DNA of 45,850 nt, from positions 1 to 45,850 of the forward strand of contig JAREWP010000074.1 of the NCBI GenBank assembly GCA_029001845.1. Direction: 5' to 3'. Below the pieces are notes generated by a model that was given only the letters and a program-made list of their open reading frames with translations, had not been told where the DNA came from and ran no database searches. Below are positions 3,324 to 31,803 of the stretch, in pieces. Origin of the DNA: Candidatus Magnetocorallium paracelense (lineage in GTDB: Bacteria; Nitrospirota; Thermodesulfovibrionia; Thermodesulfovibrionales; Magnetobacteriaceae). Made by a program: the position numbers and the translations under genes. How positions within the stretch are numbered: position 1 is the stretch's first letter; each line of letters starts with the position of its first letter.

Positions 3324-4754
3324 GTGCGCAACAAGATTAAAAAAGCATTTGTAAACCTCTCTTTCAGGCAGTTGGCCGGTCTTATTGTTTCTGCTTTTGG
3401 GAGCATATTGTTGGCCAGGATATTGGGACTTGAAATTTTCGGCCTCTATGCTGTTTCATCCTTTTTTGTAAATCTTTTCGGCAGCTTTATCAGTTTTGGA
3501 ACCGGTGCTTTTTTGATTCGCATTCAAGGTGAACCTGAAGAGGTCTACATAAGAACTGCCTTTACAATGGTCTTGATAAAGGGATTTATCCTCCTGCTTT
3601 TTATCTATTATATTTTAGCTCCAATTATATCGTCCTGGTATGATAATGAATATTTATATGACTTGGTATTTTTTAGCTCTATTGCTGTCTTTTTATCTTC
3701 TGTCTTTAAGATTTCCACGGCTTTACTGGAAAAAGAGATGGCCTATGGAAAGGTCGGTATTATAGAGGTAACCGGAATCGTTTCCTTTTACATTCCCGCC
3801 GTTGTCTCGGCTTTTTTCGGTTTCGGTGTTTTTTCTATTGTCATTGGAGAGTTGTTTAGAGGCATAAGCAGTATTATTGCTTTTTTAATAAGACCTTTTA
3901 CTTTTCGTATTGTATTGTGTAAAAAAACGTACCTTGAAATGTTCCGTTTCGGTTTTTCCTACCTCTCTGCAATGATTCCATGGACAATAAATAACGCCTT
4001 AAACCCTGTTGTTGTCGGGAAGATCGCAGGCATGGAAGCCGCCGGTATTATACGATTGTCTGAGGGGATTGTTAATCATCTTACTTTCTTTACTGCCATA
4101 ACAGACAGAATATCATATCCTCTGTTTGCCGAATATGGGGATCAAAAGGAGCGTATCAGGAATGCTGTGGAAAAGGGAAGGATCTATCAGTTTCTGTTGG
4201 CATGTATACCGCTGTTCGTTTTTTCGGCCCTCAGTTATAAACTCGTCCCCCTTCTTTATGGAGATCAATGGCATGAAGTCACAAACGTATTACTATTGCT
4301 GTCCCTTACTTATGGAATAAACACAATCTTCGGATTATATTCCAGCAGTCTCATTGTTGCCGGAAAAAACTGGGATGTGATGAAATTTACTGTGATAAAC
4401 GGCGTATGTTTATGGCTCCTCTCACCGGTTACAGTTTATTTCGTAGGTTATCTCGGTTACCCTGTCGCTATATTGGCTTCTTCTTTTTCTTATTATATAA
4501 TGCACAAGTCATTCGTCAAAAATTACGGAGCACCCGTTTATCGCATTATTTTTAAATTATTGTTTTTTTCATACTTAATTATGCTTACAGCATGGTTGGT
4601 AAAAAATATCTTTTTTTCTTTAATCATTCTTTTATCTCTTAGTGCATTGTATCTGGGTTTTTCCAAGGAGATGAAAAGTCTGTGTTACGAACTGCTCTCT
4701 ATTATTAAAGGCAGTAAGAGTGAACAGGTCTTTGCTCATGCTACTGACAGATGA
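3324..4754 (+). CDS. Oligosaccharide flippase, Wzx/MATE-like polysaccharide exporter
   Basis: The product is a 476-residue polytopic membrane protein with about 12 hydrophobic segments and the N-terminal pattern FRQLAGLIVSAFGSILLARI that is typical of Wzx-type (PST family, MOP superfamily) flippases. These move undecaprenyl-linked repeat units across the inner membrane before polymerisation. The start is GTG at 3324, 11 bases after the methyltransferase gene. The stop TGA at 4752-4754 lies inside an 8-base direct repeat (AGATGAAT) that flanks a small inserted element, so the stop originally overlapped the start of the next gene. Family assignment is firm; the exported glycan is unknown. Confidence 0.88.
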   Translation: MRNKIKKAFVNLSFRQLAGLIVSAFGSILLARILGLEIFGLYAVSSFFVNLFGSFISFGTGAFLIRIQGEPEEVYIRTAFTMVLIKGFILLLFIYYILAPIISSWYDNEYLYDLVFFSSIAVFLSSVFKISTALLEKEMAYGKVGIIEVTGIVSFYIPAVVSAFFGFGVFSIVIGELFRGISSIIAFLIRPFTFRIVLCKKTYLEMFRFGFSYLSAMIPWTINNALNPVVVGKIAGMEAAGIIRLSEGIVNHLTFFTAITDRISYPLFAEYGDQKERIRNAVEKGRIYQFLLACIPLFVFSALSYKLVPLLYGDQWHEVTNVLLLLSLTYGINTIFGLYSSSLIVAGKNWDVMKFTVINGVCLWLLSPVTVYFVGYLGYPVAILASSFSYYIMHKSFVKNYGAPVYRIIFKLLFFSYLIMLTAWLVKNIFFSLIILLSLSALYLGFSKEMKSLCYELLSIIKGSKSEQVFAHATDR

Positions 4755-4756
4755 AT

Positions 4757-4910
4757 CTAAAAAAAGCATTTAGCTGTCAGTCATCAGCTGTCAGCTTTTT
4801 AATTGCAATACTTAATGATTCAAAACACATTCACCCGTAAGGTGAAGCTTATTATTGGCATAACATCAAGACTTTCCATGGCTGATTGCTGATAGCTGAC
4901 GGCTGTTTTT
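4757..4910. mobile_element. Repeat family B, copy 1, with 8-bp target duplication
   Basis: This 154-bp non-coding element is flanked on both sides by AGATGAAT (4749-4756 and 4911-4918). Its ends are imperfect inverted repeats built from CTGTCAGTCATCAGCTGTCAGC-like words (left, AGCTGTCAGTCATCAG; right, CTGATAGCTGACGGCTG). The middle holds the small hairpin TTCACCTTACGGGTGAA (written here as its complement). Related copies lie at 18083-18234 and 31612-31761 in the opposite orientation. No transposase is encoded, so it would move only if helped in trans. Confidence 0.8.
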
Positions 4911-4912
4911 AG

Positions 4913-5626
4913 ATGAATAATCTAAGAGAGTTTTATGAAGTAACTTATCCGGCAATGCATCCTGATATCGATGCCGGGGATGCTCTGTGGAAATTTGAAC
5001 TCTTTAAAGGGCTGCTGTATGTTGCAGATGGTTTAAGGATTCAAAATATACTTGAAATAGGATGTGGTTCCGGAAGACTTCTGGAAATGATATCTTCATA
5101 CTTTCATGCCCCCGGTTTTGGCATTGATCTCTCCTGCACGACCCTGACAAAAGCAAGAAAAAAATTTCATAACATATGTTTGTTACAAGGAGATGCAGCA
5201 AGTTTGCCTGTTAAGATCGATCGGTTAGATATTGTCTATTTTGCTGACCTCTTGGAACATTTAGAGGAGCCTGAGGCATTTCTTTCCCTTTTCAAGGATC
5301 ACAGCCTTTTTTTTATGCTCGTGCCGTTGGAGTCCGGACTGATTTCGAATCTTCTTTATAATTACAGAAGATTTTTTGGCAAAGTGACGACCAGGGAAGT
5401 ATACGGACATCTCCATCGTTGGAGGAGAAGGGACATTCTTGAAATAATAAAACGATGTAACCTGAATCTCGTGAAATTCGATGTGAAAAGGGTAAATATT
5501 ACATCCTATCAATCATTACGAGGAAAAATGTACGGACTTTTGTCTGAATCTGTGTATTTCCTGTCTCCCCGCCTTCATGAGCGACTTTTGGGAGGCTGGA
5601 CATTTGTGGGAGTCTGTAGCAAATAA
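4913..5626 (+). CDS. Class I SAM-dependent methyltransferase
   Basis: Motif I EIGCGSG lies at residues 48-54, followed by the acidic motif II region (GIDLS near 67-71) and DIVYFADLLEHLEEP around 104-118, the usual Methyltransf_11-type layout. Length (237 residues) is normal. The start ATG at 4913-4915 sits within the second copy of an 8-bp target duplication left by the inserted element just upstream; without that element the start would overlap the flippase stop as ATGA. The insertion removed the natural ribosome-binding context, so expression may now depend on sequences within the element. The substrate is probably a sugar or lipid of the surrounding glycan pathway, by context only. Confidence 0.83.
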   Translation: MNNLREFYEVTYPAMHPDIDAGDALWKFELFKGLLYVADGLRIQNILEIGCGSGRLLEMISSYFHAPGFGIDLSCTTLTKARKKFHNICLLQGDAASLPVKIDRLDIVYFADLLEHLEEPEAFLSLFKDHSLFFMLVPLESGLISNLLYNYRRFFGKVTTREVYGHLHRWRRRDILEIIKRCNLNLVKFDVKRVNITSYQSLRGKMYGLLSESVYFLSPRLHERLLGGWTFVGVCSK

Positions 5627-5634
5627 GAATTTTT

Positions 5635-6726
5635 ATGAAAAAAATAATTTTATTTTCGTTAATTACTTTGTCTCTGTTCCTGATTTCTATGGAAGTGCTT
5701 GCCAGGTTATATCAGTCCTATAGGGGGAGAACAATTGCGGATAGTATATTTTCTCCTGTTTACAGGCATTATTATTTCCTGGGGCCTTCATTTAAGCCAA
5801 ACTCGAGTGGAACTTTTCAGGCTATACAAGAGATGAAGATCAATAGTCTCGGGTTTCGAGGAGATGAATTTACAATAAATAAAAAGAAAAATCATCTCCG
5901 TATCATCACATTTGGCGGTTCCACATCACACAGCGGTAATTATCCTGAAAAACTTTCCGCCATGCTTAATAAAAAACATAAATCGAAATACGACAAAATA
6001 GAGATCATCAATGCAGCGGTTCCTACATGGAATACGACGCAGAGTTTAATACAGTTTATTACAAGAGCCATTTATCTGAAACCGGATATTATAATTGTTT
6101 ATCATTCGATTAATGATTATAAGATGGATGATTTTTACTGGCTATACCATCTGCCTGAAATCGATTTTGAAGAGTACGGCGGTTTCTTAAGGAACCATTC
6201 GCAGCTTTACTGTTTTATTAGAAATAAAGTAATTGTGCTGATGGATAAGATAAAGATTTCTCTTTGGCAGAGAGATGTCGTAAACAGAGTTTATGATATA
6301 GAAAGCTTCTCTAAAAGAGAGATTACGACGAAGGATGAGGAGTGGAAAACATCGACTCAGGTGTTTAAGATGGATATGAAACATTTTATTGCTCTTACGA
6401 AATTTTACGGAATTAAGACTGTCTTTGTAACTATGCCGTTAAACCACGATCCGAAGTTGGATTTTTGGAACAACCTGTCAAGAGCCGGATATGCATACCG
6501 GAATTTTGAGGATATTGTAAAAAAAGTCAACCTCTATAACTCTGTTTTAAGAAAATTGTCCGTTGAGCACAATATACTGCTAATCGATGCCGCTGACTCG
6601 GATATGAATAAAAATTCCGACTACTTTTCAGACCTTTGTCATTTTTCGGAAAAAGGCGCATACGCTTTTGCGGATTTTTTAAATAAAGAGTTGGATGTTG
6701 TTATAAGTACTCCGGTATTCAAATGA
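5635..6726 (+). CDS. Membrane-anchored SGNH/GDSL-type hydrolase
   Basis: A hydrophobic N-terminal segment (residues 3-20) acts as signal anchor. The SGNH fold is shown by GGST at 94-97 (S96 the likely nucleophile), the NAAVPTWNTTQS block, the YHSINDYK block III/N region, and DLCH at 333-336, which supplies the catalytic aspartate-histidine pair. Family members in polysaccharide clusters are usually acyl-ester hydrolases or O-acetyl transferases acting on exported glycan. The gene starts 8 bases after the methyltransferase stop and is the last gene before a 527-base repeat-rich gap. The exact reaction is not readable from sequence. Confidence 0.75.
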   Translation: MKKIILFSLITLSLFLISMEVLARLYQSYRGRTIADSIFSPVYRHYYFLGPSFKPNSSGTFQAIQEMKINSLGFRGDEFTINKKKNHLRIITFGGSTSHSGNYPEKLSAMLNKKHKSKYDKIEIINAAVPTWNTTQSLIQFITRAIYLKPDIIIVYHSINDYKMDDFYWLYHLPEIDFEEYGGFLRNHSQLYCFIRNKVIVLMDKIKISLWQRDVVNRVYDIESFSKREITTKDEEWKTSTQVFKMDMKHFIALTKFYGIKTVFVTMPLNHDPKLDFWNNLSRAGYAYRNFEDIVKKVNLYNSVLRKLSVEHNILLIDAADSDMNKNSDYFSDLCHFSEKGAYAFADFLNKELDVVISTPVFK

Positions 6727-18082: not shown

Positions 18083-18234
18083 AAAAACGGCAGTCAGCGA
18101 TCAGCCTTCAGCTAAGGAAATTAATGACATTGCACTTAAAATAAACATCACCTTACGGGTGAGTTAAAATTAAGCTGTAAGCTGTTGTAATTAAAATGCT
18201 AACCACTGATGGCTGACTGCTAAATGCTTTTTAT
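18083..18234. mobile_element. Repeat family B, copy 2
   Basis: The copy begins AAAACGGCAGTCAGCGATCAG-like (first 18 bases AAAACGGCAGTCAGCGAT) and ends GACTGCTAAATGCTTTTTAT. It shares the central ATCACCTTACGGGTGA hairpin with the other copies at 4757-4910 (opposite orientation) and 31612-31761. No clear target duplication was found. Together with the family A copy just upstream it fills most of the 547-base gap 17733-18279; no gene is visible there. Confidence 0.75.
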
Positions 18235-18279
18235 AGTTAATAGCTTTACCCGTTGAGAACTGAAAATATGGAGGGCTTT

Positions 18280-20834: not shown

Positions 20835-20861
20835 ACTTACTGTACCTCCTTAAGAAATAAT

Positions 20862-21010
20862 GTAACTACTTAGGTGTATAGACTGAAGGCTGAAGACTAT
20901 TAGGTAAAACATGCGTTATCGATAAAAATCTTAGTTTTTTATTGGCTGACACTCCCAAACCATCAGATTTTTTACTTCAGCCTTCAGCCTTCAGTCTTCA
21001 GCCTAAGTGC
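20862..21010. mobile_element. Repeat family C, copy 1
   Basis: The left arm (ACTTAGGTGTATAGACTGAAGGCTGAAGAC, quoted as landmarks ACTTAGG and GACTGAAGGCTGAAGAC) is mirrored by a right arm of CTTCAGCC repeats ending in GTCTTCAGCCTAAGTGC. A second copy starts near 21598. The stretch has no open frame of note and lies just upstream of the matrixin remnant. Confidence 0.65.
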
Positions 21011-21554: not shown

Positions 21555-21597
21555 TATTTACAATATTACTTCATTATAGGTTACAATAGATATACAT

Positions 21598-21722
21598 AAC
21601 TACTCAGGCAGACAGACTGAAGGCTGAGGACTATCAGGTAAGAACAAAAGTATCAACAAAATATTATGCTTTATAATTGGCCGGGGAGCCGAAAAAATTC
21701 ATGATTTGCTTCAGTATAAACA
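21598..21722. mobile_element. Repeat family C, copy 2 (partial)
   Basis: ACTACTCAGGCAGACAGACT followed by GAAGGCTGAGGACTATCAGGTAA matches the left arm of the copy at 20862-21010; the segment TTATAATTGGC near 21674 matches TTTATTGGC there. The right arm is short, ending at TTTGCTTCAG. Nothing else is recognisable between the toxin remnant and the DUF362 gene. Confidence 0.55.
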
Positions 21723-21752
21723 CTAAAACAATTACAGATAAACTAAAAAACG

Positions 21753-31611: not shown

Positions 31612-31761
31612 TCCTAACAGCAGTCAGCTATCAGCCTTCAGCAAAAGAAAGTGTTAATCTTATGCCAATAATAAGCTTCACCTTACAGGTGAATGTATTT
31701 AGAACCGTGAGTGTTGCAATTTAAAAGCTGACAGATGATGGCTGCAGCTAAATGCTTTTTT
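31612..31761. mobile_element. Repeat family B, copy 3
   Basis: This copy runs from CAGCAGTCAGCTATCAGCC to GCAGCTAAATGCTTTTTT. ATGCCAATAATAAGCTTCAC is shared base for base with the complement of the copy at 4757-4910. It fills most of the 247-base gap between thrC and the cNMP-binding gene on the other strand. No target duplication is clear. Confidence 0.8.
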
Positions 31762-31803
31762 GTTCTGTACGTTACCTTACACCTGAAATGTAGACCTCAC
31801 TTG

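What the first reader, a model, noticed from the sequence alone, without database searches (positions are those of the whole stretch)
4745..4922. MITE inserted precisely in an ATGA stop/start overlap, with both genes preserved
AGATGAAT flanks the element on both sides. The left copy contains the flippase stop (TGA at 4752), the right copy the methyltransferase start (ATG at 4913). Removing the element and one repeat restores AGATGAAT, in which stop and start overlap as ATGA. The 8-bp target duplication thus split a coupled gene pair without damaging either protein, and put a 154-bp spacer with hairpins between them.
Basis: seen in the sequence. Interest (0 to 1): 0.75.

Follow-up and report, generated by a model that had tools for sequence, protein, structure and literature searches.

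The report
Small transposon splitting two overlapping genes
A short, non-coding, high-copy mobile element landed exactly where one sugar-export gene's stop overlapped the next gene's start, and because it copies the few bases it lands on, both genes stayed whole; this is an ordinary mobile element with an instructive landing site.

Summary
The repeat is real: AGATGAAT at 4749-4756 and 4911-4918, with the flippase stop TGA (4752-4754) in the left copy and the methyltransferase ATG (4913-4915) in the right. Deleting the insert plus one copy gives an ATGA stop/start overlap. The insert belongs to a MITE-like family of about 240 copies in this 6.0-Mb genome. It was not found in 59 order-level relatives, nor, by an exact 24-mer of its core, in 84,980 other species.

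Across 116 copies the duplication is 5 bp: 34 are exact against 4 expected, 32 of those fit NTNAN, and only this copy shows 8. An in-genome unoccupied site confirms 5 bp. Here the duplication is ATGAA (perhaps ATGAAT); the extra AG is the element's own TTTTTAG end. Any ATGA overlap fits NTNAN, so a 5-bp duplication there regenerates both stop and start. About 0.3 such hits are expected by chance, so one needs no special targeting.

No relative carrying the gene pair was found, so the ancestral junction is inferred. No forward promoter or Shine-Dalgarno is supplied. Loss of stop/start coupling is likely but untested. The mobilising transposase was not identified.

The parts
3324..4754 (+). flippase (polysaccharide export) gene, 476 aa, GTG start, TGA stop at 4752-4754
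   Evidence: ORF, Pfam PF13440 E 2e-45, translation
4751..4755 (+). left copy of the target duplication ATGAA; holds the flippase stop
   Evidence: position fixed by the family ends and the family's 5-bp duplication
4749..4756 (+). left AGATGAAT as reported; AG and final T are extensions outside the 5-bp duplication
   Evidence: only 8-bp case among the 34 copies with a duplication
4756..4912 (+). MITE-like element (157 bp), ends TCTAAAAA...TTTTTAG; subterminal arms of 7-bp units (TCAGCNN / GCTGANN); core stem-loop TTCACC-CGTAA-GGTGAA
   Evidence: 34-nt inverted arms 79% complementary; about 240 genome copies; alignment
4830..4846 (.). core stem-loop of the element
4913..4917 (+). right copy of the target duplication ATGAA; holds the methyltransferase start
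4911..4918 (+). right AGATGAAT as reported; its AG is the element's right end
4913..5626 (+). class I methyltransferase gene, 237 aa; in-frame TAG from the element lies directly upstream of the ATG
   Evidence: ORF, Pfam PF13649/PF08241, N-terminus resembles a homologue in G251 (MNNLREFYEVTY / MNPLGDDFYEQYG)
5635..6726 (+). next gene of the apparent operon (GDSL-like), 8-bp gap

Best explanation
A non-autonomous DNA transposon (MITE-like, 157 bp, one of about 240 copies in this genome) inserted, with a 5-bp target duplication, into ATGAA at an ATGA stop/start overlap between a flippase gene and a methyltransferase gene of a polysaccharide operon. The transposase prefers NTNAN, which ATGAN satisfies, and the 5-bp staggered cut spans both the stop and the start. 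Gap repair therefore gives each flank its own complete codon: left ATGAA keeps the TGA stop, right ATGAA keeps the ATG start. The genes went from a 4-bp overlap to a 158-bp gap filled by a hairpin-forming RNA. Shown: sequence arrangement, copy family, ends, 5-bp duplication, NTNAN preference, and an unoccupied paralogous site for another copy. Inferred: the ancestral overlap at this locus, that the pair was translationally coupled, and the transposase type (possibly IS1380-like).
For: Direct repeat and ends. About 240 genome copies: 241 pattern hits versus 3 in the reversed-pattern control. 34 of 116 copies carry an exact 5-bp duplication at canonical ends (null mean 4.0, max 15 in 500), 32 of 34 NTNAN. 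Copy L061 sits in another repeat family whose unoccupied members show the uninterrupted site with one TTTAT. Operon neighbours are 5, 11 and 8 bp apart, so the 158-bp gap is the exception. Methyltransferase N-terminus resembles that of a homologue. The flippase has its expected family domain and an uninterrupted frame.
Against: No empty site at this locus: no relative carrying the pair in 100 near relatives, 396 genomes of the phylum, or GTDB 220. Most copies (82 of 116) no longer show an exact 5-bp duplication at the aligned ends, so the family is old and decayed or its ends are variable. No transposase with matching full terminal repeats was found.
Confidence: 0.86

Rival explanations
1. The element makes 8-bp duplications, and AGATGAAT is the whole duplicated target.
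For: The direct repeat here is 8 bp long.
Against: Only 1 copy of 34 with a duplication has 8 bp; 29 have exactly 5. The right AG is part of the conserved end TTTTTAG present in most copies. The unoccupied site of L061 shows 5 bp.
Confidence: 0.04
2. The element is kept at this junction because it serves the methyltransferase: its hairpin ends pair so that the flippase stop and the methyltransferase start meet at the base of one stem, and a ribosome finishing the flippase opens the stem and re-initiates, so coupling is retained by structure.
For: The folded RNA (-59.9 kcal/mol, z -3.4) pairs 4755-4763 with 4906-4914, which places UGA and AUG side by side at the stem base with AU of the AUG paired. 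No Shine-Dalgarno precedes the AUG before or after insertion.
Against: This geometry follows automatically for any inverted-repeat element inserted here. Weak Shine-Dalgarno sites are common in this window. No expression data; one locus only.
Confidence: 0.1
3. The element targets gene junctions or ATGA overlaps specifically.
For: Many copies lie next to gene ends, and stop codons TAA/TGA and ATGA fit NTNAN.
Against: Among 116 copies no second ATGA split was seen; gene ends inside the duplication are about as frequent as gene ends 6-11 bp away (counted by eye). Expected number of ATGA hits by chance is about 0.3.
Confidence: 0.05
4. The element supplies a new promoter or terminator that uncouples the two genes transcriptionally.
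For: Terminator-like stem-loops with T runs lie in the element on both strands (4 found, 0.3 expected).
Against: No forward sigma-70-like promoter in 4600-5100 (the single match is on the minus strand, and 1.6 are expected by chance). The terminator-like stems have only 3 G-C pairs and are part of the longer hairpin.
Confidence: 0.15

Closest known systems
Bacterial MITEs in transcribed regions (Correia/NEMIS, ERIC, RUP, BOX)
   Same: Short non-coding interspersed repeats able to form hairpins, lying between genes or in operons, sometimes next to stop codons; operon insertions can alter downstream expression by attenuation or RNA cleavage (PMC3049150)
   Different: Different sequence, ends and target: 5-bp NTNAN duplication here; RUP and Correia are TA-type (own knowledge). 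In BOX the repeat often encodes the stop codon (PMC3049150), whereas here the duplicated target carries both stop and start
IS1380 family and its derivatives
   Same: 5-bp duplication (IS1247: 5 bp, PMC3281130). This genome has an IS1380-family transposase gene (L135) and 178-bp derivatives with ends CCTAAAAGTGACAATT and 5-bp duplications that share the terminal CCTAAAA
   Different: The terminal repeat beyond CCTAAAA differs (ACAGCATTTAGC versus GTGACAATT); target of the IS1380-type derivatives looks like TNNNA, not NTNAN

Membership tests
MITE | short, non-coding, many copies | tested here: met
   157 bp, no ORF of 80 aa or more in it; about 240 copies
MITE | terminal inverted repeats | tested here: met
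   34-nt arms, 79% complementary; ends C(C)TAAAA...TTTTAG(G) conserved
MITE | target-site duplication of fixed length | tested here: met
   5 bp, 34/116 exact versus 4.0 expected; unoccupied site
MITE | shares terminal repeats with an autonomous transposon of the host | tested here: inconclusive
   only the terminal CCTAAAA is shared with the resident IS1380-family element; searches with PF13701, PF01609 and PF13751 gave no better match
IS1380-derived MITE | 5-bp duplication | tested here: met
IS1380-derived MITE | full terminal repeat matches the IS1380-family element | tested here: not met
   matches over about 7 bp only
ATGA translationally coupled gene pair (ancestral state) | stop and start overlap as ATGA | tested here: inconclusive
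   follows from removing the insert and one duplication, but no natural empty site was found
ATGA translationally coupled gene pair (ancestral state) | translation of the second gene depends on that of the first | not testable with these tools
   needs reporter experiments

The most novel reading that the evidence does not exclude
The inserted hairpin keeps the two genes translationally linked: it holds the flippase stop and the methyltransferase start together at the base of a long stem, so a terminating ribosome opens the stem and re-initiates 160 nt downstream. A mobile element would thus have turned overlap coupling into structure-mediated coupling.
Probability: 0.1. Interest if true: 0.55.

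Novelty: new member of a known kind. Interest (0 to 1): 0.32.

Why it matters
It shows a simple rule by which a transposon can enter the tightest kind of operon junction without harm. If the target motif (NTNAN) covers ATGA and the duplication is at least 4 bp, stop and start are each duplicated and both proteins survive. It predicts that elements with such targets can accumulate in overlapping gene pairs and loosen operons, and it gives a clean natural test of what happens to translational coupling when a hairpin is inserted. The element itself is an ordinary lineage-specific repeat.

Tried and rejected
Empty site at the locus: searched with the methyltransferase in 100 relatives and 396 genomes of the phylum and with the flippase in GTDB 220; none carries the pair. 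The best methyltransferase homologue (G251) shows no flippase frame upstream in the 1.4 kb held. The MITE core 24-mer was sought in 84,980 species and in viral contigs: none. Matches in order-level relatives are only short stretches, mostly arrays of the 7-bp units. An autonomous partner with matching ends was not found. A second locus with an ATGA split was sought in those 116 contexts and not seen. A phage-collection search gave nothing.

Full report
Observation. The sequence is as described: AGATGAAT at 4749-4756 and 4911-4918, with the flippase TGA at 4752-4754 and the methyltransferase ATG at 4913-4915. Joining the flanks with one repeat gives ...CTACTGACAGATGAATAATCTAAG..., in which TGA and ATG overlap as ATGA. 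The genes are a polysaccharide flippase (PF13440, 2e-45) and a class I methyltransferase, in a tandem series of radical SAM, methyltransferase, flippase, methyltransferase and GDSL-like genes. The other gaps in that series are 5, 11 and 8 bp, so the 158-bp gap at the insert stands out.

The element. A DNA search of the genome (G000, 6.0 Mb, the only genome held of its genus) gives the maximum of 40 scored copies plus self-matches, and a core pattern gives 241 hits against 3 for the reversed control. Aligned copies end in C(C)TAAAA and TTTTAG(G), have arms built of 7-bp units (TCAGCNN / GCTGANN), and a small core stem-loop. The core 24-mer does not occur in 84,980 other species genomes or in viral contigs, so the family looks lineage-specific; more diverged relatives would escape that exact search.

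Length of the duplication. With 91 well-anchored copies, identity between the flanks peaks for 5-mers at the ends. Over 116 copies, 34 carry an exact 5-bp duplication at the canonical ends against 4.0 expected (max 15 in 500 partner shuffles); 32 of the 34 fit NTNAN (ATTAA, TTTAT, ATAAT, TTCAT, ATGAA, ATGAT ...). Total repeat length is 5 in 29 copies, 6-7 in four, and 8 in this copy alone. The copy in L061 lies inside another repeat family, and several members of that family, including window 20861-20990, show the same site unoccupied with a single TTTAT-type junction. In the window copy the right-hand AG is the element's end TTTTTAG, so the duplication is ATGAA (4751-4755 / 4913-4917), possibly ATGAAT. 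The 8-bp reading rests on neighbouring bases that match by coincidence.

Why both genes survive. ATGAN is one form of NTNAN. A 5-bp duplication starting at the A of ATGA contains the whole TGA and the whole ATG, so each flank receives a full copy. The ATG is immediately preceded by an in-frame TAG from the element, so the start is unambiguous in that frame. The protein begins MNNLREFYEVTY, like a homologue that begins MNPLGDDFYEQYG, by eye: BLASTP of this protein against the 54-residue N-terminal piece gave no alignment, although the longer alignment of the two proteins has E 1.7e-21. Both reading frames therefore look intact.

Is it special targeting? In 332 kb of non-redundant sequence there are 7 ATGA overlaps between open frames of 100 codons or more, about 126 per genome, against roughly 100,000 NTNAN sites in non-coding DNA (extrapolated from 769 in the 45.85-kb window). 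About 240 insertions would then hit an ATGA overlap 0.3 times by chance. No second split overlap was seen in the 116 contexts. One case does not require targeting.

Effect on expression. The inserted RNA folds strongly (-59.9 kcal/mol, z -3.4), pairing 4755-4763 with 4906-4914, which places the stop and the start at the base of one stem. No forward promoter-like site is present, and terminator-like stems are weak. No Shine-Dalgarno precedes the ATG either with the element or in the joined sequence, and many genes in the window lack a good one. Loss of ATGA coupling is the plain expectation. Structure-mediated coupling is possible but untested.

Source of the transposase. The genome has an IS1380-family transposase gene with ends CTTAAAAGTGACAATT and 178-bp derivatives with ends CCTAAAAGTGACAATT and 5-bp duplications; IS1247 of this family also makes 5-bp duplications (PMC3281130). 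Only the terminal CCTAAAA is shared with the present family, and the targets differ (TNNNA versus NTNAN), so an IS1380-like enzyme is a lead, not a demonstration.

Known parallels. Repeats of the MITE kind in operons are known to attenuate, stabilise or destabilise transcripts, and pneumococcal BOX elements often encode the stop codon of the gene before them (PMC3049150). No held paper was found on a MITE splitting an ATGA overlap, but the library covers only open-licence papers.

Limits. No empty site at this locus could be found, so the ancestral overlap is reconstructed, not observed. Gene calls are open reading frames, not curated annotation. The census covers about half of the copies.

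Noticed in passing
window 20861-20990 and 21597-21726; also L069, L100, L057, L086, L056, L130: A second interspersed repeat family with inverted ends (AGACTGAAGGCTGAAGACT ... TTCAGCCTTCAGTCT), into which a copy of the present element has inserted in L061.
   Followed up: partly
G000 C2:5136-5313, C13:4053-4230, C37:49525-49702, C59:111658-111835, C93:51711-51888, C102:13945-14122: A 178-bp family with IS1380-type ends CCTAAAAGTGACAATT and 5-bp duplications of the form TNNNA, presumably moved by the resident IS1380-family transposase (L135).
   Followed up: partly
window 31613-31764 and 18083-18236: Two further copies of the same element in the window; the one at 18083-18236 has an ATTAA duplication.
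   Followed up: yes
L138, L139, L140, L141, L145, L146, L148 (order-level relatives): Arrays of the 7-bp unit GCTGANN/TCAGCNN, some apparently inside genes, occur in related genomes without the element's core.
   Followed up: no
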